Of a DNA stretch of 64,000 bases, positions 46,075 to 62,795 are shown piece by piece (within the stretch, counting starts at the first letter, position 1; the number at the start of each line of letters is the position of its first letter). Below the pieces are notes generated by a model. That model did not search any database. It saw nothing but the letters and a program-made list of their open reading frames with translations, and was not told the DNA's origin. The DNA is from Urbifossiella limnaea (GTDB taxonomy: Bacteria; Planctomycetota; Planctomycetia; Gemmatales; Gemmataceae), in the NCBI RefSeq assembly GCF_007747215.1, contig NZ_CP036273.1, positions 3,952,322 to 4,016,321 of the forward strand, given 5' to 3'. A program made the position numbers and the translations under genes.

Positions 46075-46182
46075 GCCCCGCTTATCATCCGCACGCCGAC
46101 TATCACCACCCGTCCCTCACGCCGTTCCCCGTCCGCCCCTAACGTGCCCCCGTCGCTCCTCAACGCCGACCGGGGGTCGAGC

Positions 46183-46683: not shown

Positions 46684-46771
46684 GTCGGCGCGAGCTGTGG
46701 AGTCGGTGTGGATCGAGATGCTGCCCGGTCCAGACGTGTTCCGTTCCGCGACGCACCAAGGAAGAATTGAC

Positions 46772-47332
46772 ATGCCGTGGGTTTCGACCGTGCCGGAGGA
46801 TCAGGCGACGGGGGCACTCGCCGAGGTGTACCGCAAGGCCCGTGAGCGCGCCGGCAAGGTGCCCAACATCGCGAAACTCCAGAGCCTCCGGCCCGAGACG
46901 ACGGCCCGCGGGTTCGAGCTGTACTGCCAGCTCATGGACGCGCCGACCGGTATCAGCCGGCGGGAGCGGGTGCTGATCGCCACCGTGGTGTCGAAGGTGA
47001 ACGGGTGCTTCTACTGAATGGAGTCGCACGAGAAAGACCTCCGGTCGGCGGTCGAGAGCGACGAGCAGCGGCAAGCCATTCAGAACGACTACCGCGCGGC
47101 CGGCCTGACCGCCCGCGAAGTGGTCCTGCTCGACTACGCGGTCAAGCTGACGAAGAACCCGCAGGGGGTGTCGCGGGCGGACCTGGACGCCCTGCGCGAT
47201 CTCGGCTACACGGACGAGCAGCTGGTCGATGCCGTCCAGTGCGTCGGCTACTTCAACTTCATCAACCGCGTGCTCGACGGCCTGGGCGTCGACCCGGAGC
47301 CGGGCATGCGCTACGCCGGCCCCGCCGCCTGA
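46772..47332 (+). CDS. Peroxidase-related CMD-family protein, candidate selenoprotein (Sec82)
   Basis: 186 residues from ATG 46772 if TGA at 47015-47017 is read as selenocysteine. The fold is the carboxymuconolactone decarboxylase/AhpD family, peroxidase-related branch. N-terminal half: VPEDQATGALAEVYRKARER, VPNIAKLQSLRPETT and SRRERVLIATVVSKVNGCFY, then TGA, MESHEKDLRSAV. Relatives have C-x-x-C here, so the TGA replaces the second redox cysteine and gives CxxU. The frame continues without change into a normal C-terminal half (LLDYAVKLTKNPQGVSRADL). A GGUC-loop hairpin follows the TGA. A nonsense pseudogene is the alternative; the preserved frame argues against it. Confidence 0.75.
47036..47053 (+). 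promoter_or_regulatory. Candidate bacterial SECIS hairpin for Sec82
   Basis: The 18 bases at 47036-47053 fold as GACC-U-CC-GGUC-GG-C-GGUC, a short stem with one U-C mismatch and an apical GGUC loop. The loop starts 25 nt after the TGA, inside the 16-37 nt range published for bacterial SECIS elements, and begins with the required G. The same loop sequence is found at the second candidate. Confidence 0.65.
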
Positions 47333-47385
47333 ACGGTTCGGGCCTTCGGTGACACGCTCGTCCAGACACCTACGGGCACTCCGCA

Positions 47386-47709
47386 ATGAAACTCGGCATC
47401 GTGATCTACTCGAACGACCCGGAAACCGTGTGGAATGCGTTCCGCTTCGGCGACCACTCCATCAAGCACCACGGCGACGAGGTGCGAGTATTTCTGCTCG
47501 GGCGCGGCGTGGAGGCCGAGTCGCTCGATTCCGCTGCCTTCACGGTCACCGAGCAGATGGCACAGTTTGTCGCTGCTGGGGGGACCATCCTGGCCTGCGG
47601 CACGTGCCTGAAGCTGCGCCAGGCCGGCGGAAGCGAGATGTGCCCGGTCTCCACGATGAACGACCTCCACCGCCTGGTCGCCGAGTGCGACAAGACCCTG
47701 ACATTCTGA
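47386..47709 (+). CDS. DsrE/DsrF-like sulfurtransferase-family protein
   Basis: 107 residues from ATG 47386. It fits the small DsrE family: MKLGIVIYSNDPETVWNAFR, then VRVFLLGRGVE and VTEQMAQFVAAGGTILACGT, with ACGTCLKLR placing two cysteines near residue 70 where DsrE proteins carry a persulfide. The C-terminus has a third Cys (EMCPVSTMNDL) and a fourth (AECDKTL). Members move sulfur in persulfide form. It is probably the sulfur-handling partner in the thiol cluster and lies between the CMD selenoprotein and a methyltransferase. Confidence 0.85.
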   Translation: MKLGIVIYSNDPETVWNAFRFGDHSIKHHGDEVRVFLLGRGVEAESLDSAAFTVTEQMAQFVAAGGTILACGTCLKLRQAGGSEMCPVSTMNDLHRLVAECDKTLTF

Positions 47710-47767
47710 AACCGTTCCTCGCGACCGGTGTCGACCTCGCCGCCGATCGGCCCACAGGAGACGCGAG

Positions 47768-48589
47768 ATGAGCCAGCCCGCGACCGACATCGACGCCCTG
47801 AAGGGCCGCCTCAAGGCCACCTGGATGGCGGGCGACTTCGGGCTCATCGCCAAGAGCTACGAGGCCGGGGCGGCGGAGTTCGTCCGCCGGCTCGGGTTCG
47901 CTCCCGGCAGCAGGGTTCTGGACGTCGCCTGCGGGACTGGGAACCTCGCCGTCCCCGCCGCCCGCGCCGGGGCCGTTGTCACCGGGGTGGACATCGCCAC
48001 CAACCTGCTGGAGCAGGCCCGGTCGCGGGCCGCGGCGGAGGGGCTCACCGCCCGGTTCGACGAGGGGGACGCGGAGAAACTGTCGTACCCGGACGCGAGC
48101 TTCGACGCGGTTATCAGCATGTTCGGGGTGATCTTCGCGCCACGCCCGGAACTGGCAGCCGCCGAGTTGCTTCGCGTCTGCCGGCCCGGAGGCACAATCG
48201 CGCTCGCGAACTGGACGCCCGGCGGGTTCATCGGACAGGTGTTCAAGACGATCGCCGGCCATGTTTCGCCCCCGGCCGGTATGCCCTCACCACTTCGGTG
48301 GGGGGACGAGGCCACGGTACGGGAGCGGCTGGGAGCCGGAACGGAACAGTCCTTGACGAAGCGGATGATCCGGTTCGAGTTCCCGCTCACCCCCACTGAG
48401 GTGGTGGAGTTCTGGCGGGTGTACTACGGCCCCACGTGCCGGGCGTTCGAGGCGCTCTCGGGCGAGCCCGGGAAGCAGGCCGCGCTCCGCGCCGACCTCG
48501 AGCAGCTCTGGACGGGCCACAACCAGGCGTCTCCCGGCGCGACGCGCGTCGAGTCGGAATACCTGGAAGTAATCGCCACCAAGACCTGA
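47768..48589 (+). CDS. Class I SAM-dependent methyltransferase (UbiE/Coq5-like)
   Basis: 273 residues from ATG 47768 with GGAGACG upstream. The SAM-binding motifs are VLDVACGTGNLAVPAARAG (motif I, ~residues 56-75) and GVDIATNLLEQAR. Post-I and motif II regions (DEGDAEKLSYPDASFDAVIS and RVCRPGGTIALANWTPGG) follow. The substrate is unknown. In this setting of thiol, selenol and metal chemistry, a methyl acceptor such as arsenite, selenide or a thiol is possible, but the three-cysteine pattern of ArsM is not evident. Confidence 0.88.
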   Translation: MSQPATDIDALKGRLKATWMAGDFGLIAKSYEAGAAEFVRRLGFAPGSRVLDVACGTGNLAVPAARAGAVVTGVDIATNLLEQARSRAAAEGLTARFDEGDAEKLSYPDASFDAVISMFGVIFAPRPELAAAELLRVCRPGGTIALANWTPGGFIGQVFKTIAGHVSPPAGMPSPLRWGDEATVRERLGAGTEQSLTKRMIRFEFPLTPTEVVEFWRVYYGPTCRAFEALSGEPGKQAALRADLEQLWTGHNQASPGATRVESEYLEVIATKT

Positions 48590-48688
48590 GCGCGGTGGCC
48601 GGAGCGGGCGGTACACGCGGTCCGCGGGTCGTCCCACGCGGACCGCGTCCGAAACCGAGGGACCGACGACAAGCACGGAGAGAGCGAC

Positions 48689-49354
48689 ATGCCTTTGCTG
48701 AGCGGAATTCGTGTGGCGGCGGTGGGCGCGGCCCTCGCGGGACTCGTCTGGACGGCCGCGGCCGACGACACGGAGGGGGCCGCCGACCGGACCTCGGCGA
48801 ACGGCGTCAAGGTCCCGCCGGGGGCGAGTGTGCGCGCCTACCAGGTGTGCTGATACGACACGGCGAACGCCGTGCTGGCTGGTCAGCCAGGAGTGATCGA
48901 CGTCGTGAAGCTGGTCCAGAAGACGCCGCTCAAGGAGTGGGTGACGGTCTACTTCGACGGGACGAAGACGACGCCGGAGAAGGTGCTCAAACACCTCCGC
49001 GAGAAAGAGTCGCCGGAGGCCGCCATGGTACAGCCGGTGACGGCGGACAAGTCGGGTGTGAAGGTGGTCGTCGACAATCCGGTCGCGGCCCCGGGCGACT
49101 TGGTCAGGGTGTCGGTCCGGCTCGCTGACGGGAGCACGGGGTCCGCGAGGGTGGTCCTCCCGAAGGGATGGCGCGTGCACCGCGGGCCGAAGGCGGATGC
49201 CGGAGCACCCCGCTTCGACATCCAAGTCCCCGGGATCGAAGCGGCGGGGAAGCACGAGGGCTCGGTCGTCGTGAGGCGGGGCACGCCGGAGGCCGATGTC
49301 AGGATTCCGTTTGCCGTCGAGCTCGTCCCGCGGGTCGAGCCGAAGGGGAAGTAA
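48689..49354 (+). CDS. Exported HMA-like protein, candidate selenoprotein (Sec55)
   Basis: 221 residues from ATG 48689 (SD GGAGAGA) when TGA 48851-48853 is read as selenocysteine. A signal peptide covers residues 1-30 (VAAVGAALAGLVWTAAA). Then VRAYQVC-U-YDTANAVLAGQPGV leads into an HMA-like beta-alpha-beta unit ending EWVTVYFDGTKTTPEKVLKH. From U to GV there are 12 residues, exactly as from the second metal Cys of MerP to its GV. So Sec falls at the metal-binding position next to Cys54; the usual first Cys is replaced by Gln. A ~110-residue beta domain follows. A perfect GGUC hairpin lies downstream of the TGA. Confidence 0.78.
48875..48890 (+). promoter_or_regulatory. Candidate bacterial SECIS hairpin for Sec55
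   Basis: A perfect 6-bp stem CTGGCT/AGCCAG (48875-48880 with 48885-48890) closes a GGUC loop. The loop starts 27 nt after the TGA, within the published 16-37 nt window. GGUC is also the core of the E. coli fdhF SECIS loop. It lies inside the coding sequence, as bacterial SECIS elements must. Confidence 0.75.
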
Positions 49355-49462
49355 GAGCAGCCGGTCGAGAGCAGCTGACGCGGCCCCCCACGACTCGGCA
49401 ACGGGTCGTGGGGGGCCGTCCGTTCTGACGCCGCCCGCCCCGCCACTCGCGAGGACCTGAGT

Positions 49463-49975
49463 ATGCCACTCCTGCCGCCGCTCAGTGCCACGGAAGCCGG
49501 TGAGGCGCAAGGCCCGCTCGAGTCCCTTCGGGAGAAGCTCGGTCAGGTGCCGAACATGTACCGCACCTTCGCCCACGCCCCGCTCGTCCTCGACGCCGCC
49601 GTCTCGATGGCCAAGGCCGTCCGGACCGTACTCGACGCGAAGACCCGCGAGCTCGCATACCTGAAAGTGGTTGAGATCACCGACTGCCACGTCTGCCGGC
49701 ACTACCACGTCGAGCACGGCCGCCGGGCTGGGCTGACCGACGAACAGATCCGTGACCTGCTCCCCTTCGAGGAGAGCGCGGCCTACACCGGGGGCCAGAA
49801 GGACGTGCTCCGGTTCACGGAGCAATGGACGCTTACCGGCCGGGTGGCCGACGACGTGCTGGCCCGGCTCCGGGCCGCGTTCACGCCCGGGCAGCTCGTG
49901 ACGCTCGCCGCGACGGTGGCACAGGCAAACCTCACGTGCCGGTTCAACAACGTCTTCGGGGTCGAGCTTCCGTGA
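49463..49975 (+). CDS. AhpD/CMD-family protein with CHVC redox motif
   Basis: 170 residues from ATG 49463. The AhpD-like core is LREKLGQVPNMYRTFAHAPL, then TRELAYLKVVEITDCHVCRH, YHVEHGRRAGLTDEQI. The pair CHVC and the downstream His match the redox site of AhpD-like proteins, which reduce peroxiredoxins or other thiol partners. Here both positions are Cys, unlike the selenoprotein candidate at 46772 in the same cluster. It follows the HMA-like selenoprotein by 108 bp and precedes the cysteine synthase by 30 bp. Confidence 0.9.
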   Translation: MPLLPPLSATEAGEAQGPLESLREKLGQVPNMYRTFAHAPLVLDAAVSMAKAVRTVLDAKTRELAYLKVVEITDCHVCRHYHVEHGRRAGLTDEQIRDLLPFEESAAYTGGQKDVLRFTEQWTLTGRVADDVLARLRAAFTPGQLVTLAATVAQANLTCRFNNVFGVELP

Positions 49976-50005
49976 CGCCTTCCGAACCCACCAAGTAGAT
50001 GCCGT

Positions 50006-50968
50006 ATGGGCAGTACCACCATTCTTGACCGCATCGGGAACACGCCGCTCGTTCGACTGAACCGGGTCGCCTCCGGTTGCCCGGTCCCGGTGTACGGGAA
50101 GTGCGAGTTCCTCAACCCGGGCGGGAGCGGCAAGGACCGGATCGCCAAGGCAATCGTGGACGATGCCGAGCGCCGCGGCGTACTGCGGTCCGGGATGACA
50201 CTGATCGAAGCGACGGCCGGGAACACCGGCATCGGGCTCGCGCTCGTCGCCGCCGTCCGGGGCTACCGGCTCGTGTGCGTGATGCCCGAGAAGATGTCGG
50301 AGGACAAGCGGGCCGCCCTCCGTGCCGCGGGCGCAGAGGTCGTCGTCACGCCGAACGCGCCGCCCCACGACCCGCAGAACTTCCAGCAGGCAGCCCGCCG
50401 GCTCGCGGCCGAGCGGGGTTGGTTTTTGACCGACCAGTTCGCGCACCCGGCCAATCCGAGGGTCCATGAGGAGACGACCGGGCCAGAGATCCTGGAGCAG
50501 TGCGGCGGCCGCGTCGGCGCGTTCGTCTGCGGGGTCGGCACCGGCGGCACGATCACCGGCGTCGGGCGCTACCTCCGGGCGCGGGCTCCCGGGGCGAGTG
50601 TGATCCTCGCCGACCCGGTCGGCTCCCGGCTCGCCCACCTGGTGAACCCAGCGCACCCGGATCACGACGCGGCCTACGCCGTGGAGGGCATCGGTGGAAG
50701 CGTCGCGCCGCCCGTCCTCGACTTCGCGGTCATCGACATCGCCGAGCGAGTGTCGGACGACGAGTCGTTCGCCATGACTGGCCGGCTCATCCGGGAGGAG
50801 GGCCTGCTCGTCGGCGGCTCGTCGGGAACGGCAGTTGCGGCTGCTCTGCGGATCGCGGCCAGGAGCCAGCACAGCGACCCGATCGTCGTTCTTCTCGCCG
50901 ACTCGTGGGACCGCTACCTCTCGCGAGCTTGGATACGCCAGGGCACGGCGAGTCTCGAAAGTGAGTGA
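50006..50968 (+). CDS. PLP-dependent cysteine synthase family protein
   Basis: 320 residues from ATG 50006. Fold-type II PLP enzyme: ILDRIGNTPLVRLNRVA, then LNPGGSGKDRIAKAIV with the PLP lysine in SGKDR, the substrate loop ATAGNTGIGLALVA, the phosphate-binding GVGTGGTITGVGRYL and a late GGSSGTAVAAAL. These fit CysK/CysM/CBS; a normal cysteine synthase is the first choice. It ends the thiol cluster and could supply cysteine or act on a selenium or homocysteine analogue. 479 bp of non-coding DNA follows. Confidence 0.92.
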   Translation: MGSTTILDRIGNTPLVRLNRVASGCPVPVYGKCEFLNPGGSGKDRIAKAIVDDAERRGVLRSGMTLIEATAGNTGIGLALVAAVRGYRLVCVMPEKMSEDKRAALRAAGAEVVVTPNAPPHDPQNFQQAARRLAAERGWFLTDQFAHPANPRVHEETTGPEILEQCGGRVGAFVCGVGTGGTITGVGRYLRARAPGASVILADPVGSRLAHLVNPAHPDHDAAYAVEGIGGSVAPPVLDFAVIDIAERVSDDESFAMTGRLIREEGLLVGGSSGTAVAAALRIAARSQHSDPIVVLLADSWDRYLSRAWIRQGTASLESE

Positions 50969-51350
50969 TGGAAAGAGTGCAGTGGCCAGGGTGAGGTCGC
51001 GAAGGCCGCCGGTTAGCACAAGCGATACGGTTTAGGATCGCAGGCGATTCGGCGGTTAGGGTAGTCGAAGCCCACGATGCCGGATCCGATCGCGGCGAGT
51101 CCGAACGGACACGGTCTTTGCTGCGTCGGTCCGACACCCCGAGGGTCTGAAGCTCAACACCGCCAGATCGAATTTGAGGGGACTTGGCTCATAAATAGCA
51201 CGTCTCGCTACTCCTCCCCCGACGGATCGCGGGGTGCTATCGGGCCGCCCACCGGCGGCCCGTCCGGACCAATCAACTACTGGACTGTCGCCAGCTGCAT
51301 AACCTGGAACCCGCCCCGCGGGTGCGCATTGTCTCCCGCCAGCCCGGGCC

Positions 51351-51375
51351 GGTGCTGGGGAGAATCTCCAGCACC
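51351..51375. terminator. Hairpin 1 between convergent units
   Basis: GGTGCTGG pairs with CCAGCACC at both ends, extended by two further pairs around a GAA loop. No T-tract follows on either strand. It may act together with the next hairpin. Confidence 0.45.
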
Positions 51376-51389
51376 GCCCGGCGAATGAG

Positions 51390-51427
51390 ACCGGGAAGGG
51401 TCGGTCCTTTAGCCGACCCTTCCCGGT
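51390..51427. terminator. Hairpin 2 between convergent units (15-bp perfect stem)
   Basis: 51390-51404 pairs perfectly with 51413-51427 around an 8-base loop. It lies 20 bp beyond the minus-strand stop at 51448, so it fits a terminator for the RT module and possibly for the thiol cluster. The U-tract is absent, as often in GC-rich genomes. Confidence 0.55.
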
Positions 51428-51447
51428 AGTAACTCGGCCGGCCCCGC

Positions 51448-52038
51448 CTACCCGTGGACGAGCCGCGCGGCGCGGGTCGGCGCAGCGCGCCGCCGGCCCT
51501 TGGTGCGGACCGGGGCGGCGGGCTTACTGACCGGGGTCGCCGGGGCGGGCCTCGGCAGGGGAGTCAGCAGCCGCCGGCAGAGAGCCAGCTGCTTGAGGGC
51601 CGCGGCGAACTTCGCCTGCGCGCGGTCGGCCCGGTCGAGCAAGAATCGCCGGTGGGTGTCGGGGAGGTCCTGAAGGCCGGTCTGGGCCGCCCGCGCCGCG
51701 AAGTACTGGCTCTCCAGCCAGGCGAGTCCTGCCTGTCGGGCCAGTAGCTGCTCGATCAGCGGCGCCCCGTCCCCGGCCAGCGCGGCGGTCAGCCGCCGCA
51801 GCTCGAGGTCGAGCGCCTCCCGGACCACCAGGTCGTGCCCGGCGGCCAGCCCGATCCACGACCGCTCGGCCTTCAGCCCCAGGTCCCCGACCTCCCGCCA
51901 CACCCGCTCGTTCTCCTTCAGGAACTGGCGCAGCCCCGGGAGGGTCGACAGGTCCCCGCCCATCGCCGCGAGCAGCATCTGCCTCACCCCGGCCGGGAAC
52001 CCGGCCCCGGCGGCCGGGTCATTGTTCGTCGCGTCCAT
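51448..52038 (-). CDS. Unrecognised helical protein, distal gene of RT module
   Basis: 196 residues from ATG 52038. Nearly all-helical: VRQMLLAAMGGDLSTLPGLR, WREVGDLGLKAERSWIGLAA and DRAQAKFAAALKQLALCRRL, then a basic Pro/Arg-rich tail. No known domain. The start overlaps the stop of the upstream gene by 20 bp, so translation is probably coupled. It is the last gene of the minus-strand run. Confidence 0.7.
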   Translation of the reverse strand: MDATNNDPAAGAGFPAGVRQMLLAAMGGDLSTLPGLRQFLKENERVWREVGDLGLKAERSWIGLAAGHDLVVREALDLELRRLTAALAGDGAPLIEQLLARQAGLAWLESQYFAARAAQTGLQDLPDTHRRFLLDRADRAQAKFAAALKQLALCRRLLTPLPRPAPATPVSKPAAPVRTKGRRRAAPTRAARLVHG

Positions 52039-52336
52039 GCCGTCTTCTCCAGTGACCCCGGGCGTGCTGGTGGTAGCCCGCGGCCACCAACTCCGCCCGG
52101 AGCAGGTCCATGACCAGTCCCGCGAACAGGGCGGCGGCCGCGTCCGCCGCCACTGCCCGCACCCGCTCGTCCCGAAACGCGGCCGCCATGCCGGCCCGCC
52201 GCTGCCGCTCCTCGGCGTCGAGGGCGGCCGCGAGCCGGGCGTCGGGGCCGCACCCCCAGTATTCCCGCCAGACCCGCCCGCCCCGCTTCACCGTGCGGTA
52301 GTAGTACTTCTTCCCCTTGCGCGTCTCCCACGGCAT
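52019..52336 (-). CDS. Small basic protein of the RT module
   Basis: 105 residues from ATG 52336. The N-terminus MPWETRKGKKYYYRTVKRGG is strongly basic and aromatic, followed by RVWREYWGCGPDARL. The C-terminal half is a helix ending in His/Arg (HQHARGHWRRRHGRDE). The composition suggests nucleic-acid binding. I recall similar small proteins with a GKKYYYR-type start as common in planctomycetes, without known function. Confidence 0.7.
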   Translation of the reverse strand: MPWETRKGKKYYYRTVKRGGRVWREYWGCGPDARLAAALDAEERQRRAGMAAAFRDERVRAVAADAAAALFAGLVMDLLRAELVAAGYHQHARGHWRRRHGRDEQ

Positions 52337-52354
52337 CGTTGTGTCCCCCGCCCG

Positions 52355-53188
52355 TCACTGCGCCGCCCCGGCCCCGGTCACCGCGCCGTCGGCGCCGGGT
52401 GCGGCTCGGTCGGAGGTGGGGTCGCCCGTGTCCGCGGCGCGGAGGGCGGCGAGCCGCTTTCGTACCCGGGAGAGAAGACCGGTCAGCGGCCCGAGGGTCT
52501 TGAGGCGGTCGGCCGGCACCGCCTCGGTGGCGACGGCGAGCCGGACGGTCAGCCGCCACTCCCAGTCCTGCAACACGTCCAGCCCGACCCCCACCACGTC
52601 CGGCGGGACGTCGGGCGGGCTAGTGGTGAAGTACTGCACCAGCAGGTCGATCGCCCCCGGCCCGCGGCGGTACCCGATCACCTTGAGCGCCCGCTCGGCG
52701 TCGTCCACCCCGCCCTGCCGGATAAGCAGCGGGACGATGACCGTGTTGTGGACGACGCTCCGATTCTTCCGGCGGCCGCAGACGTCGAAGAACACCCGGT
52801 CGTACGCCGTCACCGTGGCCGCCGACAGGCCGCAGGCGCTCGCTACGGCGGCGACCCCCTGGCCGGCCGCCAGCCGGGCCTCCACCACCCACCGGCCGAA
52901 CGGGTGCGGGGACCGGAGCAGGTCGTGGGCGGCCAGTAACGGGGTCGACGGCCGCGGGTGGTCGGCGGTGGGGTCGGCGAGGTGGCGGCGGAGGCCGAAC
53001 GCCCGGTGGACCCACGGGTCGTCGGACTCGGCGTGCGGCGTCCGGCCGTACCGCAGGAGCGTCCCGGCGAACCGCCAGCGCCAGTCGAGCGGGCGGAGCG
53101 GCCGGCTGGCGACCAGCGGGTCGAGCAACTCGTCGTCCGCGGCGGCCGGGTTAAGGCTGCGGTGGATGATCTCGGGCAAGGTTGACAC
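52355..53188 (-). CDS. Unrecognised 277-aa protein, possible HTH
   Basis: 277 residues from GTG 53188. The N-terminal 130 residues are rich in Arg and Trp (LRPLDWRWRFAGTLLRYGR). A helix-turn-helix-like segment GVAAVASACGLSAATVTAYD sits near residue 112-131. The second half is helical and the tail is Ala/Gly-rich. It could be a regulator or nucleic-acid-binding partner of the RT. No family assigned. Confidence 0.65.
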   Translation of the reverse strand: MSTLPEIIHRSLNPAAADDELLDPLVASRPLRPLDWRWRFAGTLLRYGRTPHAESDDPWVHRAFGLRRHLADPTADHPRPSTPLLAAHDLLRSPHPFGRWVVEARLAAGQGVAAVASACGLSAATVTAYDRVFFDVCGRRKNRSVVHNTVIVPLLIRQGGVDDAERALKVIGYRRGPGAIDLLVQYFTTSPPDVPPDVVGVGLDVLQDWEWRLTVRLAVATEAVPADRLKTLGPLTGLLSRVRKRLAALRAADTGDPTSDRAAPGADGAVTGAGAAQ

Positions 53189-53299
53189 AGGATTTGTACT
53201 CCGTTGTGGCGGCGGCCTTGCCGCCGGTTCCTATGGGCTTGTTCCTTCTGCCGTCGCGTTGGCGGGGCGGACCCGGGGTTGGCGCCCCCGACACGCCGT

Positions 53300-54001
53300 T
53301 CAGCTCACGTCCACCTCCGACCCGGTTCGCTCCAGGTCGGCGAGGGCGTCCGCCAGTTGGACCGCGTCGGCGGTGAGGGTGCGCCCCACCCGGTCCAGTT
53401 CGACGACCAGGCTGCGCAGGTCCCCGAGGACCCGCGGCGGGGTCGACACCCCGTCCCGGATGGTGGCGAGCAGCCCCCCGGACTGGGCGGCGAAGATGGC
53501 GTCCTGGTAACTGGTCTGGCGGTCGAGCTGCCGCAGGTAGCCGGCGACGTTCCGCTCGAACCCCTTGGACCGTGGCGGCGCGGCCCGCCGGCCGCCGCGC
53601 GGGCGGTTGCTGACCTCGTGACAGCCCACGTCGGCACTCATCTCGCGGACCGGCTGGGCGAGCGTGATCGCCCGGTTGATCGTGGCGGCCCGCCGCTCGT
53701 CGTCCTTGACCCTCAGGGCGACGCAGAGCTTCGCCCAGCTGATGCGGCCGTCCCACGCGCGGATGTCCGCCGGCGAACACCGGCCCGCGCAGTTGAGAGT
53801 CGAGTAGATCAGGCTGCGATCCAGCCCGAACCGACCCCCGACGGCCCTGATCCAGTCGTCCCCGTACCGGCTACACTCCTGGATTCGGCCGAGGAGGACC
53901 CCGAGCCGGTGGTACCAGGCCAGCTTCACCACCCGTTGTTGAAGGTGACGCTCCAGCTGGCGAACCGTCGGCGCCAGTCGCTCGTCGTCGAGAATCGCCA
54001 C
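53300..54001 (-). CDS. Unrecognised 233-aa protein before the RT module tail
   Basis: 233 residues from GTG 54001, with a perfect AAGGAGG site. The N-terminal 110 residues (LERHLQQRVVKLAWYHRLGV, RFGLDRSLIYSTLNCAGRCS, ISWAKLCVALRVKDDERRAA) weakly recall the DUF1016 type, but I do not claim membership. The C-terminal 90 residues form long helices, probably coiled coil. It lies 205 bp downstream of the RT gene in the same direction. Confidence 0.68.
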   Translation of the reverse strand: MAILDDERLAPTVRQLERHLQQRVVKLAWYHRLGVLLGRIQECSRYGDDWIRAVGGRFGLDRSLIYSTLNCAGRCSPADIRAWDGRISWAKLCVALRVKDDERRAATINRAITLAQPVREMSADVGCHEVSNRPRGGRRAAPPRSKGFERNVAGYLRQLDRQTSYQDAIFAAQSGGLLATIRDGVSTPPRVLGDLRSLVVELDRVGRTLTADAVQLADALADLERTGSEVDVS

Positions 54002-54206
54002 GTTGATCCCTCCTTGTGTGAGTTCGTCGGGGCGGCACCTCGTCGCCCACTACGCCGGCCCAGTGTGATGGGCCGGGGTTACGTCACCCCACCGCACCCC
54101 GACGGACCCGCCAGCGGGTCGATCAGGGGCAGCACTACTGCGGGACTGGAACAGTCAGCTGATCCGGCCCCGCGGGACTGGGCGGCGGAGCTGCCCGTCA
54201 CCGTCG

Positions 54207-57203
54207 TCATCCTTCTCTGGACTCACGTCCTTGACGGGCTGCCCTCTCGAGCTTCCCCCGCCATCGGTTCCGTGAGCCCCGCAGCCGTTCGGACAGCTTC
54301 TCTGGGGAGATGGCCCCGTCGAACCCGTTCTCCCGGGCGGTGGAGAGGATGGTCTGGTGGACGGCCTCCAGCCGGTTCTCGACGGCCGGTCCGCAGGCTG
54401 CCGCCCATCCGCAGAGGATGGACCTGGCCTGCGTCCCCGGGTCGTCCGCCCGGTGGGCGTCCTGGAGAGCCGCCGCCAGGTCCGTCCAGGCGTCGTCCGG
54501 GATGTCCGGGACGACCTTCCTGTCACGAACCTGGAGGGTGAACCCCAGGAGTTCCACGGGTCGGACACGGAGGTCGGTCGGTGTAGACGGTCCGGCCGTC
54601 GTCCCCTTGAGGTCGAGGCCGACCTGTCCGAGGAGTTGGCGGACCAACCCGAGCGCCTCCACGCCGTCGGTCTCGCTCCGGACCAGGTACGCGACGTTGT
54701 CGGCGTATCTGGTCCAGAACGGGATGAGTGCCCCCTCCCGGTCGACGGCGAGGTCGTGCCGGGGGTGCAGGTGGGTGTTCAACAACAGGGGCGACAGCGG
54801 ACACCCCTGGGTGATGCCGACTCCCTCCTTTCGGTGGTGGCGAGGGTCGCGACCCCGGACGATCGCCTCGACCAGGTTGAGTAACGGGGCGGGGTCGTAG
54901 TTCTTGGGCAGCGCGGTGGCGAGCATCGCCTCGATGTCCGCCAGCAGCAGGTCGTGGCAGACGCTCGGGAACGCCTGCTTCACGTCGTCGTCCACGATGT
55001 TGGTGATGCCGGTGTAGTCGACGTACGCCTTCAGGGCGGCGAGCGCGTCCCAGTGGTCGCGGCGGAGGTCCGGCGGCGCCGCCGACCCGGCCGACCGGAA
55101 CCCGTACGAGCCGCCCAGGAAGTGCGGGTCGAGGTGCGGGGCCAGCGCGCGGTTCAGGGCGCCGGCCAGCACCCGGTCCAGGACCGAGCCCACCTCGATG
55201 GGGCGGAACCTGCCGTCGGGCTTCGGGACCTTGACGAGACGGGTCGGCTCGGGCCGGTAGCCGCCGTCGAGCACCCGCACTGACAGGCCGCGGAGGTGGC
55301 CGACCCACTCGCGCGGGGACAGGTCGTACAGCCCGATGCCGTCCTCGCCCGCGCCCCACCCGGCGCCGGAGCCCGTCATGTCGAGCAGCACCGCGTACAG
55401 GTTGTCGGTGCCGACGATCTCGTCGACCAGCGGCAGGTAGCCGTTGCGTCCCTCGAGCACCCTCCGCGCCTCGTTCTTGGGGCGCAAGCGGGAGTGCCGC
55501 GAATAGCCCGAGAGCCGGTTCGGCGGCAGGCGACGCGGCCGGCCGGTCGGTGGCGTCAGTTGTGCCGTTGACGGTTGGAGCAGCGCTACCACAATCGGTT
55601 CCGCCTGCGCGGTGGTGTCGTCGGCGTCGGCGTCGGCGTCGGTGGTGGTGGAGTCGCCCCCGACCAGCTTCGTGGCCGCCAAGGTGCCCCGGATCGCGTC
55701 CCCATCAGGGTGGCGCGCCAGGTAGCGGCGGAGTTGGTCGGACCCCGCCGGCTCGGCGATCGACCGCCAGCCCAGCCGGCGGTACGCCGCCCGCCGGCTG
55801 CGGCCGTTGCGCTGCAGGCCGCGGTGGAAGCGGTCGTCGATGTCGATGAACACCAACTCCGGGGCGGTCGAGTCCGCCGAGCCGAAGTCGGCGGCGCGGG
55901 GCAAGGGGCCGGTGCCGCCGTCGGCCCGGATCACCACGTCGTACTCCCCGAGGGGGACCTCCTTGAGCCCGCCAAAGGTGCAGACGACGGCGGCCGGCTC
56001 GCCGCCGACCGGCTCGCCCCAGCCCAGTCCCGTGCGCCCGGGCGCCGGCAACGGGCAGAGTCCGCGCCCCGCCCCCGCCCAGCCGGGCAACAGCGAGAGG
56101 ACCCGGTTCCCGTGCTCGGCGTTCTCGACGACCACGGCGACGTGGTACCCGGTCTTCGCTCGTCGACCGGACGGGGGCAACCGGCGACGGAGACTCTTCG
56201 GCACCAGCCTCGTGACTGCCCGGTGGTCGCCGGTGTGTAGCGCGGCCGCGATGTCGGCGATCTGCCGGTTGCGGCCGGCGTTGGCCCAGACGCCGATGTC
56301 CTTCACCTTCCCGGGGGGTAGCCCTATTGCGAGCCGGGTTCCTCGGTACGGCACAGCTCCGTACACCACGGCGCGGTCGGTCAGGCCGTGGCGGCCGACC
56401 CGCACCTCGGCGAGGCCGTAGACGCGCATCAGCCGGTCGAGATCGGCCGGGGGCACGGCGGCGGTGTCGGCCAGCAGCCCGACCAGCCGCCCGGGGCTGG
56501 CGCACTCGACGGCGCGGAGCGCCCGCTTTTCCAGCCCCTCGAGCACGTCCAGGACGACGACGACCTCGCGCCGGGCCAGCAGCGCGTCGTCGTGCGCCAG
56601 CCCCTCGAAGGTGCTGACGGCGACGCGGGTCCGGGGGAGTTCGCGGCCGCGGGGGCCGGTGAACGTCGTCACGTCCAGCCCGGCGTCGCGGGCCAGGGCG
56701 ACGAACGCGTCGACCTGCCCCACGGTCTTGCCGACCACGGCAACCGACTTGGCGGCGAAGGCCAGCGGGATCTGCACCGCCAGCCACACCGGGTCGACGA
56801 CGCGGCGGTCGTAGCGGACGGTGAGGTACGGCTCGCGGGCGACCGCGCCGATCACCCCGGCGTCGGGGCAGAGCCCCGGGTCGAGGGCGGCGGGCGACCA
56901 CGGGGCCGGGGCGGGCATCCGGACGCGGCCTCCGCCGGCGCGGACGAACTCGGCCGCGAGGGCAGCCAGTGGGCGCGGCCCGGCCAGGCAGGGGGTGCCG
57001 GCGAGGTCGTCGGCCGGGGCGAACAGCGGCCGGGTCACCCACTTCAGGCGGACCGGCGACCCGTCCGCCGCCGCGACCACCTCGCGGGTCGTCAACAGGC
57101 TCAGCCCGGCCAGCGGCGGGGTAATCGCCGCCACAGCCCCCGCGGTGCGGACGGTTACCGTCGCCGGGGTGATGTTGCCGGTGGTGTGCCCGTGCGGCGG
57201 CAT
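54207..57203 (-). CDS. Degenerate SF2 helicase fused to reverse transcriptase (YADN)
   Basis: 998 residues from ATG 57203. Residues ~120-480 follow an SF2 helicase without its ATPase residues: AKSVAVVGKTVGQVDAFVAL, RTRVAVSTFEGL, VVVVLDVLEG (where DEAx would be), YHVAVVVENAEHGNRVLSLL, EPAAVVCTFGGLKEVPLG and YDVVIRADGG. No Walker A is visible. An acidic Asp/Thr linker (~515-535) leads to a reverse transcriptase: KPDGRFRPIEV (661-671), DDDVKQAFPSV (738-748, motif A), GITQGCPLSP (796-805, motif B) and YADN (833-836, motif C). A helical thumb-like tail follows. There is no maturase X or endonuclease domain. The second Asp of YxDD is Asn, so activity may be altered. The frame upstream is closed only by TAG, two codons before the ATG. 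Confidence 0.82.
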   Translation of the reverse strand: MPPHGHTTGNITPATVTVRTAGAVAAITPPLAGLSLLTTREVVAAADGSPVRLKWVTRPLFAPADDLAGTPCLAGPRPLAALAAEFVRAGGGRVRMPAPAPWSPAALDPGLCPDAGVIGAVAREPYLTVRYDRRVVDPVWLAVQIPLAFAAKSVAVVGKTVGQVDAFVALARDAGLDVTTFTGPRGRELPRTRVAVSTFEGLAHDDALLARREVVVVLDVLEGLEKRALRAVECASPGRLVGLLADTAAVPPADLDRLMRVYGLAEVRVGRHGLTDRAVVYGAVPYRGTRLAIGLPPGKVKDIGVWANAGRNRQIADIAAALHTGDHRAVTRLVPKSLRRRLPPSGRRAKTGYHVAVVVENAEHGNRVLSLLPGWAGAGRGLCPLPAPGRTGLGWGEPVGGEPAAVVCTFGGLKEVPLGEYDVVIRADGGTGPLPRAADFGSADSTAPELVFIDIDDRFHRGLQRNGRSRRAAYRRLGWRSIAEPAGSDQLRRYLARHPDGDAIRGTLAATKLVGGDSTTTDADADADDTTAQAEPIVVALLQPSTAQLTPPTGRPRRLPPNRLSGYSRHSRLRPKNEARRVLEGRNGYLPLVDEIVGTDNLYAVLLDMTGSGAGWGAGEDGIGLYDLSPREWVGHLRGLSVRVLDGGYRPEPTRLVKVPKPDGRFRPIEVGSVLDRVLAGALNRALAPHLDPHFLGGSYGFRSAGSAAPPDLRRDHWDALAALKAYVDYTGITNIVDDDVKQAFPSVCHDLLLADIEAMLATALPKNYDPAPLLNLVEAIVRGRDPRHHRKEGVGITQGCPLSPLLLNTHLHPRHDLAVDREGALIPFWTRYADNVAYLVRSETDGVEALGLVRQLLGQVGLDLKGTTAGPSTPTDLRVRPVELLGFTLQVRDRKVVPDIPDDAWTDLAAALQDAHRADDPGTQARSILCGWAAACGPAVENRLEAVHQTILSTARENGFDGAISPEKLSERLRGSRNRWRGKLERAARQGRESREG

Positions 57204-57209
57204 GTTCGT

Positions 57210-57680
57210 CTACGCCATCCCGTTCGTGGTGGTGAACTCGTTCGTGGTGGGGACGCCGTACACCAACTTGGTGGCGATCATGTTGCCGGTGTCGGTGGCG
57301 ATCATGTTGCCGGTGTCGGTGGCGCTCATGTTGCCGGTGTCGGTGGCGATCATGTTGCCGGTGTCGGTGGCGATCATGTTGCCGGTGTCGGTGGCGCTCA
57401 TGTTGCCGGTGTCGGTGGCGATCATGTTGCCGGTGTCGGTGGCGATCATGTTGCCGGTGTCGGTGGCGATCATGTTGCCGGTGTCGGTGGCGATCATGTT
57501 GCCGGTGTCGGTGGCGATCATGTTGCCGGTGTCGGTGGCGCTCATGTTGCCGGTGTCGGTGGCGCTCATGTTGCCGGTGTCGGTGGCGCTCATGTTGCCG
57601 GTGTCGGTGGCGCTCATGTTGCCGATGGCGGTGCCGTTCCCGTGCTCGGCCGTGAGCCCTTTGTCCGCAGACCACAGCAC
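57210..57680 (-). CDS. Repeat-encoded leader ORF in frame with the RT gene
   Basis: 156 residues if started at GTG 57680. A short start (LWSADKGLTAEHGNGTAI) leads into 15 octapeptides GNM(I/S)ATDT, then KLVYGVPTTNEFTTTNGMA and a TAG (57210-57212). The RT start codon lies two codons after this TAG in the same frame. Expression is uncertain: the start is only inferred and all three frames of the repeat are open. It could be a separate low-complexity protein, an upstream leader of the RT, or the N-terminus of the RT with an amber stop. Confidence 0.4.
   Translation of the reverse strand: MLWSADKGLTAEHGNGTAIGNMSATDTGNMSATDTGNMSATDTGNMSATDTGNMIATDTGNMIATDTGNMIATDTGNMIATDTGNMIATDTGNMSATDTGNMIATDTGNMIATDTGNMSATDTGNMIATDTGNMIATKLVYGVPTTNEFTTTNGMA
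57271..57630. repeat. 24-bp tandem repeat, 15 units
   Basis: The unit on the plus strand is GTGGCG(A/C)TCATGTTGCCGGTGTCG. Fifteen units lie head to tail with no spacers; the last ends differently (GATGGCG). Apart from that, only one position varies, A or C, in the order AACAACAAAAACCCC. On the minus strand this switches Ile (ATC) and Ser (AGC) in GNM(I/S)ATDT. No stop codon occurs in any frame. Confidence 0.95.
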
Positions 57681-57724
57681 CGTCGCGCCCGGCCTGGGGC
57701 TACCGCCCGGTGACGTGGCGGCCG

Positions 57725-58546
57725 TCAGCCAGCCTTCTGCCGGAGACGGGCGATCAACTCCCCGGCTTTCCGGAGGGTGCGGTCCTGCTCGCGAGTCAGT
57801 TCGGGCGGTTCGCCCTCCAGCGGCCCGAGTACCTTCGACCACCGGTGCATGGACTTGACGAACCCCACGAGCGTCCCCGTGACGGCCGCGGGACTGCCCC
57901 CGCCGAGGTGGCGGCTCCGTACCTCCCCCACCGGGACGCCGGCCCGCAGAGCCTGGTCGACCCGCCGGGCCACCTCGGCCCCGGCCGCCACCACCCTCAG
58001 CACGTCGTCGAGGCGGAGGTGGCCCGCGAGGAACTGCCGCCGGACCTCGGCCGGGGCCGCCAGCGCCCCGGCGTAGCGGCAGAGGTGGGTCCGGGAGACC
58101 CCGAACACCTCGCGCCACATCTTGTACAGCCGCTCGGACCGCCTCTTCGTGTGCTTCCGCTTGTAGGCCGTCTTGTCCTTGATGCTGTTCAGCGGCGGCA
58201 TGGCCTTGATCACCTGTTCCGTCACGACGTAGGCCCGGCCCATCGCCAATTCGTTCCTGGCCTCCGGCAACAGGTCTTTCGCGCCGAACATCTGCACCAC
58301 GGCGGGGTCCTCGTCGGGGTCGCCCACGGGGACGGCATGAACATCCACCTCCTCCCGCTCGACGGCGGCCAGGTAGTCCGCCACGCCGACGACGACGAAC
58401 TCGCCGGCGACGCCGATCCGGCCGCGCCGTGGCGGGGCGGGAACGAGTGCGCAGAACACGGGGTCGTTGAGTAGAGCGGTCACGACTGCCGGGAGCCGCA
58501 GAGCTGCAACCGGGGTCGAATGGCCGCGGCTTGTGGGTTTCGACAC
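57725..58546 (-). CDS. ParB/KorB-like DNA-binding protein
   Basis: 273 residues from GTG 58546, chosen because GGAGG lies 7 bp upstream; the frame extends to ATG 58642 without such a site. The central part VTEQVIKAMPPLNSIKDKTA, KRRSERLYKMWREVFGVSRT, HLCRYAGAL and RRQFLAGHLRLDDVLRVVAA recalls the helical DNA-binding domain of ParB/KorB. No clear ParB nuclease-like N-terminal motif is present. It may serve maintenance or regulation of the element. It is divergent from the zinc-finger protein at 58701. Confidence 0.65.
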   Translation of the reverse strand: MSKPTSRGHSTPVAALRLPAVVTALLNDPVFCALVPAPPRRGRIGVAGEFVVVGVADYLAAVEREEVDVHAVPVGDPDEDPAVVQMFGAKDLLPEARNELAMGRAYVVTEQVIKAMPPLNSIKDKTAYKRKHTKRRSERLYKMWREVFGVSRTHLCRYAGALAAPAEVRRQFLAGHLRLDDVLRVVAAGAEVARRVDQALRAGVPVGEVRSRHLGGGSPAAVTGTLVGFVKSMHRWSKVLGPLEGEPPELTREQDRTLRKAGELIARLRQKAG

Positions 58547-58700
58547 GATCGCCTCCATTGAGGGGTGGAAAAGCATGCCCGGACCGGGGCCATGCGGAAC
58601 AGCGCGATCACGGGTGGGTAGCCACTTGCCACGAGACGACATGTAGTGTAAAACTTAGAACAGAAGAAAACAAGCGTAGCGCATGGAAGAGGCGTAGCAC

Positions 58701-59579
58701 ATGAACGGGTGGGCCTGGAAGGTTTCTGAGGCCGGTTATGGCTGGGAACTTCCGAAGGATGGTGGCGGGACGCCAGTCCTGGTGGTGTCTCGCCCGTGGC
58801 CGAACCGCGTGTATGTGCCGGCCGCCGAGCAGCCCGCATTATTCCGCGTCTTCGCGGAGTTGGCTCCCGAGCCACAGGCGATGCTCGACTTCGCAAATGC
58901 CTACGGCCATCTCGGGGACTTCCTTTGGCTGGCTGGGGGCGGTCTAGCTCCTGATCGCGCCGGTGGCGCCGACCCGCTCAACGACGCTCTTGTGCGGCGG
59001 ACGGGGCTTGCTCCCGACCGACTGGGGAGGGAGCGAGCGGAGACGGTGTCCTTCTGGAAGGCTCAGATTGAAGCGATGCGTGCCCCGTGTTTGCTCTGGG
59101 AAAGGGTGGCGGAGGGGAAAGACGACCCCGACCTAACCGCGCGGGTGGCCGAGGCCGTCGACCAGGGGTGTCGGGAGCGGGTCGAGTGCCGGTTCAGCTA
59201 CGACGCGCGGGGCCGCACAGCCGGCTGGTCCCGCACGCCAGTGGACCTCCTCGGAGCCCTCTGGCTGCAGTTCGCCGACACGGTGGCGGGTAACAAACGG
59301 ACCCGGCGGTGTTCAGTCTGCGACCGGTGGTTCTTGGTCGCCACCGGCGCGGGCCGGACCGACAAGGAACACTGCTCGCTCGCGTGCCGCCAGAAGGCGT
59401 ACCGGAAGCGCAAACAGGACGCGATCGACCTCTATGCGACGGGCATGCACCCACGAGAAATCGCTTCTAAGTTGGGCTCGGACTTCGACACCGTGAAGGG
59501 ATGGCTCAAGGGGCAGTCGGGGGGTGAGAACTCGACCGATGACGAGGTCAAACCCCTTCGGCCCGGGCTCGACCTCTGA
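58701..59579 (+). CDS. CGNR-like zinc-finger and HTH protein
   Basis: 292 residues from ATG 58701. The N-terminal 190 residues are unrecognised, with an ABATE-like feel. Then RRCSVCDRWFLVATGAGRTD and KEHCSLACRQKAYRKRKQD form a four-Cys zinc finger as in CGNR proteins. An HTH-like helix pair follows (ATGMHPREIASKLGSDFDTV), so it probably binds DNA. It may regulate excision or the divergent ParB-like gene. Confidence 0.7.
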   Translation: MNGWAWKVSEAGYGWELPKDGGGTPVLVVSRPWPNRVYVPAAEQPALFRVFAELAPEPQAMLDFANAYGHLGDFLWLAGGGLAPDRAGGADPLNDALVRRTGLAPDRLGRERAETVSFWKAQIEAMRAPCLLWERVAEGKDDPDLTARVAEAVDQGCRERVECRFSYDARGRTAGWSRTPVDLLGALWLQFADTVAGNKRTRRCSVCDRWFLVATGAGRTDKEHCSLACRQKAYRKRKQDAIDLYATGMHPREIASKLGSDFDTVKGWLKGQSGGENSTDDEVKPLRPGLDL

Positions 59580-59702
59580 TGATGAGGTGACCGATGTTAG
59601 CGTTGCCGCAGACGGCAGGGGGTAATGCCTGTAGCGGTCGGAGTTTTACGGAGTCGTTCGGATCGGCAGCGAGTGAGAACCCGTGAAAGCGAGGGATAGC
59701 CC

Positions 59703-60560: not shown

Positions 60561-60567
60561 GCGGCAT

Positions 60568-61644
60568 TCACCCGGCGGCCTTCTTCGCCATCTCGCGCAT
60601 GTGTGCGACCCGCTCCTGCAACTGGCTGTAGTGCCGCATGACCATGTCGGTGCTGCTGTGCCCGACCAACTCCGCGACCTTCACCACGTCAACGCCCTTC
60701 TCGAGGGCGTCGGTCACGAACGCCCGGCGGTAGCTGTACGCGGTGAAGTGCCCGAAGGCGGGGAACCGCTTCCGCAAGACGCGGAACCGGCAGCGGATCG
60801 CGTTCCGGTTCCACGGCCGGCCCCGCGAGTTGAGGAACAACGGGCCGTCCTGGTTCTGCGCGGCGAGCCGTCGGGTCAACCCGACCATCGCGTCGGTGAG
60901 GTACACTACCCGCGGCTTCCCGGTCTTCCTGCCGGTCTTGTGCGCCTCGAGCGTCCACACGCCGAGGTCGAGGTTCGCGTCGGCGGCCGTAACGGCCGCG
61001 ACCTCGCCGGGCCGGCAACCGGTCTCCGACAGTGCGGTGAGGAAGCCGCGAAACGCTTCGTCCCGGGTCGCATCGAACAGCACCCTCCGCTGCTCGGGGG
61101 TCAGGTAGGCGCGCACCCGCGTCGCCGGCGGGACGTCGATCCCCGCGATGGGATTGACCGACAGCAACCTCCGCTTCGGGTTCACCGCCCAGTTGAAGGC
61201 GCCGAGCACGCAGAGGATCGCGTGCCGGCGCGACGCCGTCCACGTAGGGTGCGCGTCGAGCCAGTGCTCGACGAGGTCGACTGTGATCCGGTTCGGCGGG
61301 TTAGAGCGCACGCTCCGGAAGCGGATGAACGAGCGCAGGAAGAAGCGACGCTGCTGGTAAGTGGCCTCGGCCTTGTTCTTCTTCGTCCAGCCCAAGTAGC
61401 GCCCGAACAGGAAGACGACGGAGTCCCGTGGGGCAGAGGCGCTGGGCTCCGACTCGCGCTGCCCCATGAGTTCGCCGAAGAGCTTGAGGATGGAGGGCGG
61501 GGCGTTCCACAGGCCCGTGTTCTTGGACTTGCGAGGGCCGGGGGCGTCGGCGGGGTGCTCCCCTAGCCGGACCTGCTTGCCGTCGACTTCGACGAACCAG
61601 GCGTTCCGGACTCTGCGGTACCAGGGGTGTCGGGTGCGGGCCAT
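60568..61644 (-). CDS. Tyrosine recombinase (integrase) of the element
   Basis: 358 residues from ATG 61644, preceded by GAGGAG; the longer frame upstream runs through the attachment site and is not coding. A SAM-like N-terminal domain (residues ~60-160) precedes the catalytic domain. Catalytic residues: R211 (ETGCRPGE), a Lys near 236-243 (AHKTGRKTGKPR), Y303-x-x-R306 where most have H-x-x-R, H329 (LVGHSS) and nucleophile Y339 (MVMRHYSQL). The gene ends toward the interior and starts 176 bp from the right repeat. Together with the excisionase-like gene and tRNA repeats it is the probable integrase. Confidence 0.93.
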   Translation of the reverse strand: MARTRHPWYRRVRNAWFVEVDGKQVRLGEHPADAPGPRKSKNTGLWNAPPSILKLFGELMGQRESEPSASAPRDSVVFLFGRYLGWTKKNKAEATYQQRRFFLRSFIRFRSVRSNPPNRITVDLVEHWLDAHPTWTASRRHAILCVLGAFNWAVNPKRRLLSVNPIAGIDVPPATRVRAYLTPEQRRVLFDATRDEAFRGFLTALSETGCRPGEVAAVTAADANLDLGVWTLEAHKTGRKTGKPRVVYLTDAMVGLTRRLAAQNQDGPLFLNSRGRPWNRNAIRCRFRVLRKRFPAFGHFTAYSYRRAFVTDALEKGVDVVKVAELVGHSSTDMVMRHYSQLQERVAHMREMAKKAAG

Positions 61645-62041
61645 GGGCTCCGGTCTCCTCGTAACCGAGGTGGAGAACCAGGAACCTGAATTCGTCGATT
61701 CCCTGCCGTGGTTCCCTGCCAGATGGTACGGCAGGCCGGGTTCCAGGGATTCCAAAAGTGCTTCAGGAGAACGGTTTGGGGAAAGTGCCAGCGGGGCTCG
61801 GTATGAGCGGCCCCCTTCTACCCCAAGCAAGCGCGCTAGCCAAGCTGCGCTACGGCCCGGAACGTACTCTTTGTACCGGACCGGACAGCCACCGGCAACC
61901 GCGGGTTCGCGGCTCCCACGAACCGATCCTGAAGATTTCGGTTTGGGGGTTGGCGCGACCGCGGCTCTGTGGTTCAATCTTGCTTAGAACACTTCGCCCG
62001 ACCGAACCCGTCTCTCCACACGTCGAACACGGAGGGTTCAG
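61645..62041. other. Right end of element (arm-site region, attR, flank)
   Basis: 397 bp without a gene. It contains ATTCCCTGCC at 61699-61708 followed closely by TTCCCTGCC, matching the pair at 3001-3020. The inverted sequence CTCG-TAAC-CGAG lies around 61658-61672, and the 40-bp tRNA-Pro repeat at 61820-61859. The part after 61859 is presumably chromosomal, with a promoter for the small gene at 62042. Confidence 0.55.
61820..61859. repeat. Right 40-bp attachment repeat (attR core, partial tRNA-Pro)
   Basis: Identical to 2837-2876. It carries the 5' half of tRNA-Pro through the anticodon loop, but the 3' half is absent, so it cannot be a working tRNA. It lies just outside the integrase gene, as expected of an attachment site. 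Confidence 0.8.
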
Positions 62042-62263: not shown

Positions 62264-62286
62264 GTCGACGACCGAGCCCGCCCGGC

Positions 62287-62751: not shown

Positions 62752-62795
62752 GGCGGAGCTCCCCGGAGTGCACCGCCGCGGGCGGCGGCGGCGGG

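What the first reader, a model, noticed from the sequence alone, without database searches (positions are those of the whole stretch)
51448..54001. Four unknown genes downstream of the RT fusion
Genes at 53300, 52355, 52019 and 51448 run in the RT direction. Two overlap by 20 bp, one has a perfect SD, and another is strongly basic. Their constant presence with the RT would define a new module.
Basis: inference. Interest (0 to 1): 0.55.

Follow-up and report, generated by a model that had tools for sequence, protein, structure and literature searches.

The report
Mobile-element genes beside an unusual RT
Three of these four unknown genes form a conserved unit of planctomycete mobile DNA elements; many such elements carry a DNA-copying gene set near that unit, and here its place is taken by a reverse transcriptase, which hints that this enzyme may help copy the element.

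Summary
All four genes are real. B (52355), C (52019) and D (51448) form one coupled unit; A (53300) is a rare extra.

B-C-D, or part of it, lies beside 9 of the 20 RT loci first collected. But B-C-D also occurs without the RT (12 loci), and C-D far more widely. At one chromosomal site of related genomes the RT pair is replaced by other genes while B-C-D stays. So this is not an RT-dedicated module.

Better reading: B-C-D belongs to tyrosine-recombinase integrative elements of Planctomycetota. Without the RT, such loci often carry a replication-type gene (PolA, D5/Toprim, DUF927, DUF3854, AAA_25, winged helix): 17 of 40, against 0 of 20 control regions and 0 of 9 RT+B-C-D loci. The RT pair lies where those modules lie, between integrase/Xis and B-C-D. 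I propose that it primes or copies the element's DNA (about 0.3); defence cargo is the main rival. In the window and in L262 a tandem array (24 nt; 18 nt) precedes the RT start.

The parts
53300..54001 (-). Gene A, 233 aa, rare accessory; own Shine-Dalgarno
   Evidence: ORF; homologue inverted in L262 at the same place; otherwise only weak matches in 397 genomes
52355..53188 (-). Gene B, 277 aa, weak helix-turn-helix signal
   Evidence: HTH_23 0.048 below cut-off; family in alignment A2; precedes C within 1 kb in 18 of 24 B hits, on either strand
52019..52336 (-). Gene C, 105 aa, basic, beta-hairpin plus helix
   Evidence: alignment A4; model of the C-D fusion of L093
51448..52038 (-). Gene D, 196 aa, helical; overlaps C by 20 bases
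   Evidence: alignment A3; C-D fused in 10 of 26 adjacent pairs
51390..51427 (.). 15-base perfect inverted repeat, likely end of the unit
54207..57203 (-). RTn-RT fusion, 998 aa (RTn about 1-560, RT about 590-998), YADN active site
   Evidence: PF00078 4e-14; model and fold match
57270..57633 (.). 24-nt tandem array, 15 copies, directly upstream of the RT
57725..58642 (-). Gene U, related to the ParB-like gene upstream of RTn in relatives (weak)
   Evidence: local HMM 1.7e-5; blastp 0.001 to L087 gene
58701..59579 (+). X1, HTH protein shared with L087, L089, L104
59703..59909 (+). X2, excisionase-like HTH_17
   Evidence: PF12728 8.9e-12
60568..61977 (-). Tyrosine integrase at the other end of the element
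   Evidence: PF00589 8.3e-18

Best explanation
B, C and D are backbone genes of tyrosine-recombinase integrative elements of Planctomycetota. They probably act together as a DNA-binding complex at the element's origin or ends (B by its HTH; basic C with helical D as a coupled pair). Next to them sits an exchangeable module that in many elements is a primase, polymerase or helicase set; in this element it is gene U plus the RTn-RT fusion. Most likely course: integrase and excisionase free the element; U, RTn and B-C-D bind repeats near the RT start; the RT primes or copies the element's DNA (or an RNA of it) and so keeps it in the cell. Shown: the genes, their coupling, their recurrence, the shared neighbourhood, and the swap at one site. 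Inferred: DNA binding, and the RT's role in copying (about 0.3 taken alone; the backbone reading of B-C-D about 0.7). Gene A is an accessory of the closest subfamily.
For: Coupling: C and D overlap, and are fused in 10 of 26 adjacent pairs and in L262. Neighbourhood: replication-type genes, hit by seeds from another genome, in 17 of 40 non-RT B-C-D or C-D loci (6 of 12 and 11 of 28) and in 2 of 2 B-only loci; 0 of 20 control 18-kb regions; 0 of 9 RT+B-C-D loci; 0 of 11 other RT loci (Fisher p 2e-4 against controls, 0.017 for 6 of 12 against 0 of 9). Pfam names: PolA (L103, L148, L231), DUF927 (L148, L097, L101), D5_N (L098), DUF3987/DUF3854 (L225), AAA_25 (L147). Order integrase/Xis - RT pair - B-C-D in window, L086, L090, and integrase - RT - B-C-D in L262. 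Swap: left flank 91% and B-C-D 73.5% identical (DNA), RT pair in L099 but RHH/winged-helix genes in L145. Both RTn and B in 5 of 392 genomes (RTn clear in 9, B in 14), p 3e-6. Arrays before the RT in window (z 20.1) and L262 (z 7.8), control maximum 5.7 of 300. Literature: such displacement is taken as a sign of equivalent function (PMC2579912, section 6 read); RTs, a group II intron RT among them, prime DNA de novo in vitro (PMC10415136, abstract and passages read).
Against: The controls are arbitrary regions, not matched islands, so 17/40 against 0/20 mainly shows that these loci are mobile-element regions. The seeds came from the non-RT loci. L086 carries an AAA_16 ATPase (1.9e-4, below cut-off) and an HTH protein beside its RT pair. 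8 of 20 RT loci have neither B nor C-D and are not cut close to the pair, and only 2 of the 11 RT loci without B-C-D show an integrase. The primase-polymerase of the mobile element ICETh2 proved unnecessary for the element's replication and acted in defence (PMC7693054, abstract read). The second catalytic Asp is Asn in 15 of 20 RTs. No att repeats were found. No convincing fold match for C-D.
Confidence: 0.45

Rival explanations
1. The RT pair is a defence system carried as cargo, like other lone bacterial RTs. B-C-D only marks the islands on which it travels and does something for the element.
For: Several C-D loci carry defence-like cargo (L223, L227). RT and B-C-D part at one site and at 11 of 20 RT loci. 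ICETh2's primase-polymerase acts in defence (PMC7693054, abstract).
Against: No defined DRT class fits: best class UG21 4.7e-9 against generic RT 2.5e-28. RT+B-C-D loci show no other replication-type gene by the seeds (0 of 9), and the RT pair lies in the module's place in the elements with integrase or Xis.
Confidence: 0.35
2. One reading: A-D are dedicated partners of the RT and together form one new RT system.
For: All four recur beside the RT fusion in L262; B-C-D follows the RT on the same strand in window, L086, L087, L090, L093 and L262.
Against: B-C-D without the RT in 12 loci, C in 21 and D in 25 of 99 relatives; A at 2 of 21 RT loci and inverted in L262; divergent layout in L099, L100, L137, L138; the label is not clustered on the RT tree (6 changes, 132 of 500 shuffles as low).
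Confidence: 0.08
3. The RT copies an RNA from the array region upstream of it (DGR-, retron- or DRT2-like), and A-D process or use the product.
For: Tandem arrays at the same place in window and L262; RT fold close to the DGR RT 8ub7 (Z 27.3).
Against: 20 other upstream sites show no array; no template/variable repeat pair in the window or L262 beyond self and array matches; no Rfam match.
Confidence: 0.07

Closest known systems
SCCmec replication module CCPol-MP-Cch2 (PMC7581432, abstract and section headings read)
   Same: Element-borne polymerase with a partner in a recombinase-bearing element; PolA- and DUF927-type genes of that sort lie in several non-RT B-C-D or C-D loci; repeats near the module
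   Different: Here the polymerase is an RT, the recombinase is a tyrosine integrase, no helicase with intact motifs was found, and no activity is shown
TV-Pol mobile elements (PMC2579912, passages and section 6 read)
   Same: Same argument: one polymerase family displaces another in integrase-bearing elements; a Gemmata member is named there
   Different: TV-Pol is related to A-family polymerases; the passages I read do not put an RT in that place
Group II intron-like RTs (GsI-IIC, G2L4)
   Same: RT fold with thumb: Z 28.3 to 6ar1, 25.1 to G2L4 9d4s; group II model E 5e-33
   Different: Model score 114.7 against cut-off 300; no intron RNA match; YxDN in 15 of 20; fused to or paired with RTn
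Defence-associated RTs (DRT/UG classes)
   Same: Lone bacterial RT on genomic islands
   Different: No class model fits well; different partner genes

Membership tests
Group II intron | Intron RNA around the RT | tested here: not met
   Rfam evalue search of 48000-64000: 0 matches at E<=1
Group II intron | Group II RT/maturase model over its curated cut-off | tested here: not met
   TIGR04416 114.7 bits against 300
Group II-like RT | RT palm, fingers and thumb fold | tested here: met
   PF00078 over cut-off; Z 25-28 to group II and G2L4 RTs
DRT (defence RT) | Match to a defined DRT/UG class | tested here: inconclusive
   best hit is the generic RT model 2.5e-28; best class UG21 4.7e-9
DRT (defence RT) | Protects against phage | not testable with these tools
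   needs a phage assay
Diversity-generating retroelement | Template repeat and variable repeat differing at A | tested here: not met
   in the window and the 16 kb of L262 the rows shown and the counts fit self and array matches only; whole genomes not scanned
SCCmec-type replication module | A-family polymerase | tested here: not met
   an RT instead; no PolA seed hit
SCCmec-type replication module | DUF927/Cch-type helicase | tested here: not met
   no seed hit in window 44001-64000
Replication module of any kind | Primes or copies element DNA | not testable with these tools
   needs biochemistry or a copy-number assay
SF2 helicase (RTn half) | P-loop and DExx motifs | tested here: not met
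   neither is conserved in alignment A1; hhalign to local helicases probability 0.65%, like the controls
SF2 helicase (RTn half) | Two-RecA fold | tested here: inconclusive
   alternating strand/helix order in the model, but the fold search rows cover residues 586-993
ParB-like protein (gene U) | ParB N-terminal domain | tested here: inconclusive
   window U matches the local ParB-like HMM in its C-terminal part, 1.7e-5; relatives hit ParB PHROGs and ParB_N below cut-off
Integrative element | Integrase and excisionase at the locus | tested here: met
   PF00589 8.3e-18, PF12728 8.9e-12
Integrative element | Flanking att repeats | tested here: inconclusive
   longest shared words are at chance level in window and L262; short or imperfect att cores cannot be excluded

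The most novel reading that the evidence does not exclude
A reverse transcriptase has taken over the job of the primase-polymerase in DNA integrative elements: RTn-RT, with a ParB-like protein and the B-C-D complex, starts and carries out copying of the element from an array of iteron-like repeats placed directly before the RT gene.
Probability: 0.28. Interest if true: 0.85.

Novelty: new variant of a known kind. Interest (0 to 1): 0.58.

Why it matters
Replication enzymes of different families are known to displace one another in mobile elements, and that swapping has been used to predict function (PMC2579912, section 6 read). A reverse transcriptase in that slot would be a new case and would give a natural home to the reported ability of RTs to start DNA synthesis without a primer (PMC10415136, abstract and passages read). 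B-C-D itself is an unnamed gene set that marks many planctomycete islands and gives a handle for finding them and their cargo. My ten literature searches in the open-access library listed no paper whose title or shown abstract describes this RT family or B-C-D; subscription papers are mostly not held.

Tried and rejected
(2) Phage or plasmid home: viral-contig scans with D and with the YxDN fragment gave no confirmed relative; D against plasmids and C against phages gave no match. (3) RTn as a recognisable helicase: Pfam on all 9 members gave only two chance hits, the PDB profile search only weak hits, hhalign no better than controls. I read a degenerate helicase plan by eye from the strand order of the model; no test supports it. 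(4) C-D fold: Foldseek found nothing at E<=0.001; VIA-align rows (best Z 8.8) are within the range the tool gives for helical bundles. (5) att sites and empty site: repeats at chance level; of the window's proteins only the query gene itself was found on each same-family flank contig fetched. (6) Dropped or set apart before counts: L152 (no B, C or D by the HMMs); L150 and L151 (B only, listed apart); L089 and L163 set aside as cut in the tree label test, where L144, cut at its RTn end, was kept as 'no B-C-D'; L262 was found through gene A, so it is not in the 9 of 20; 4 weak, partial RTn hits were left out of the 9. (7) In one search the 28 'C-D only' loci are those fetched because searches hit C or D there; several are short contigs, and for two (L218, L235) my gene caller shows no C or D gene. 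(8) L234 holds another RT, without RTn; it was kept among the non-RT loci. (9) The hairpin and iteron readings are inspection only.

Full report
WHAT IS THERE. The four ORFs exist as described, on the minus strand behind a 998-aa RT fusion: A 53300-54001, B 52355-53188, C 52019-52336, D 51448-52038. A codon-usage caller picks the same four frames, and third-position GC is 0.89-0.95. C and D overlap by 20 bases; A has a perfect AGGAGG; C has pI 10.4 and D 10.9. A perfect 15-base inverted repeat follows D. No Pfam, NCBIfam, PADLOC or PHROG family gives more than a weak hit for A, B, C or D.

THE SURROUNDINGS. Upstream of the RT fusion lie a tandem array of 15 x 24 nt (57270-57633), gene U (57725-58642), then X1, an excisionase-like X2 (HTH_17, 9e-12) and, at 60568-61977, a tyrosine integrase (8e-18). 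The integrase is at one end and D at the other, about 10.5 kb apart. The closest relative found, L262 (G493), has the same plan in its own chromosomal flanks: integrase, DUF3102 gene, U (59% identity), RT fusion (67%, also fused, YADN), A (39%, on the opposite strand), B (41%), C-D fused in one ORF (C 59%, D 59%). L262 was found through A, in a search of 397 genomes of the class in which 8 matched at E<=0.001: the window's own, G493, and 6 weak ones.

THE RT PAIR. In most relatives RTn and the RT are two adjacent genes; both halves are in one ORF in the window, L139 and L159 and in L262. With profiles I mapped 20 RT loci: window, L086-L091, L093 (RT only, at a contig end), L099, L100, L137-L144, L159, L163. 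A ParB-like gene directly precedes RTn in L087, L089, L141, L142 and L143; window U matches that family weakly. The RT half models with high confidence and matches group II, DGR and G2L4 RTs at Z 25-28. Motif A was found in 19 of 20 by pattern; motif C reads YxDN in 15 of 20 and YxDD in 5 of 20. The RT family is set apart, with full support, from the only two RTs of the window's own genome that I could use as outgroup, out of five tried. A scan of 84,980 species genomes with a YxDN fragment gave 7 loci, all Planctomycetota by their titles.

IS B-C-D TIED TO THE RT? At least B or C-D is beside 9 of the 20 RT loci: downstream on the same strand in window, L086, L087, L090 and L093; divergent in L099, L100 (C-D only), L137 (B only) and L138. 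In the other 11 none was found; three of these (L089, L144, L163) are cut by a contig end close to the pair. In a phylum sample of 392 genomes RTn is clear in 9 and B in 14, both in 5 (p 3e-6; without the own genome 4 of 8, p 5e-5); 4 further RTn hits were weak and partial and were left out. On the other side, 12 loci hold B-C-D (or B with C) and no RT: L092, L094-L098, L104, L145-L149. C is in 21 and D in 25 of 99 relatives. On the RT tree the label 'beside B-C-D' needs 6 changes and is hardly more clustered than shuffled labels (132 of 500 as low); on the B tree 'beside the RT' needs 5 (50 of 500). One site shows the swap: L099 (G054) and L145 (G324) share a left flank at 91% DNA identity and B-C-D at 73.5%, but between them L099 has the RT pair and L145 has RHH, winged-helix and unknown genes and a second B. 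So the two modules meet often and part often.

WHAT B-C-D BELONGS TO. C-D are adjacent on one strand in 26 cases in the loci mapped by then, fused in 10, so they probably work together. Around non-RT B-C-D or C-D, Pfam finds PolA (L103, L148, L231), DUF927 (L148, L101, and L097 with a Cch HTH domain), D5_N with DUF5906 (L098), DUF3854 and DUF3987 (L101, L225), AAA_25 (L147) and a weak LigD primase-polymerase hit (L149, 0.0057). Some carry defence-like genes (L223, L227). To count fairly I searched with such proteins as seeds and accepted only hits from a different genome: 6 of 12 B-C-D loci, 11 of 28 C-D loci and 2 of 2 B-only loci are positive; controls 0 of 20, RT+B-C-D 0 of 9, other RT loci 0 of 11. 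L262, searched later with the same seeds, gave integrase hits only. Integrase counts: RT+B-C-D 3 of 9, other RT loci 2 of 11, B-C-D 2 of 12, C-D 8 of 28, B-only 0 of 2, controls 2 of 20. Limits: the controls are arbitrary regions, the seeds come from the non-RT loci, and L086 has an AAA_16 ATPase and an HTH protein next to its RT pair.

MOST LIKELY MECHANISM. In elements with a visible integrase or Xis the exchangeable module lies between these and B-C-D: RT pair in window, L086, L090 and L262; winged-helix gene in L104; AAA and primase-like genes in L149. Following the published displacement argument (PMC2579912, section 6 read), the RT pair is a candidate for the element's priming or copying enzyme. 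RTs, among them a group II intron RT, start DNA chains de novo in vitro (PMC10415136, abstract and passages read). A working parallel is the SCCmec module of an A-family polymerase, its partner and a helicase (PMC7581432, abstract and headings read). The arrays before the RT start in the window (24 nt, z 20.1) and in L262 (18 nt, z 7.8; control maximum 5.7 of 300 stretches) could be iterons, but they are also open frames that end in one TAG shortly before the RT's ATG; 20 other sites upstream of RTn, ParB-like or U genes show nothing above z 3.6. B, and basic C with helical D, would be the DNA-binding partners; that is inference. A caution is ICETh2, whose primase-polymerase was not needed for replication and acted in defence (PMC7693054, abstract read). 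I give the backbone reading of B-C-D about 0.7 and the copying role of the RT about 0.3.

VERDICT. B-C-D is a separate backbone unit without a name in the libraries I searched; A is a rare accessory; the RT pair in the place of a replication module is the point worth testing.

Noticed in passing
window 57210-57720; L262:9416-9809: Repeat array before the RT start in both elements (24-nt x 15; degenerate 18-nt), open in the RT frame with one TAG before the RT's ATG.
   Followed up: partly
window 54207-57203 and relatives: YxDN in place of YxDD at the RT active site in 15 of 20 loci, with motif A found in 19 of 20.
   Followed up: partly
L099:6492-8252 (and L137): The RT carries a C-terminal RNase H-like domain (PF00075 8.6e-4, below cut-off); L137 inferred from 85% identity.
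   Followed up: no
L088:11787-12191 and 13161-13799; L086, L087: KilA-N-type genes (PF04383 4e-10 in L088) near the RT pair, with 33-nt tandem repeats in L088.
   Followed up: no
L223, L227, L234: C-D near Helicase_C, MZB and Eco57I/MmeI genes that look DISARM-like (label recalled).
   Followed up: no
G000:C1:4490077-4491972 (L096): The window's genome has a second B beside C-D, B divergent from C-D, no RT found nearby; C-type hits at further places of the genome.
   Followed up: partly
L105, L221, L228: QueC-like proteins with a partner gene recur beside C-D; possibly defence cargo.
   Followed up: no
window 54055-54076: GC-rich hairpin in the 205-base gap between RT and A (sequence); a possible terminator or small RNA.
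   Followed up: no
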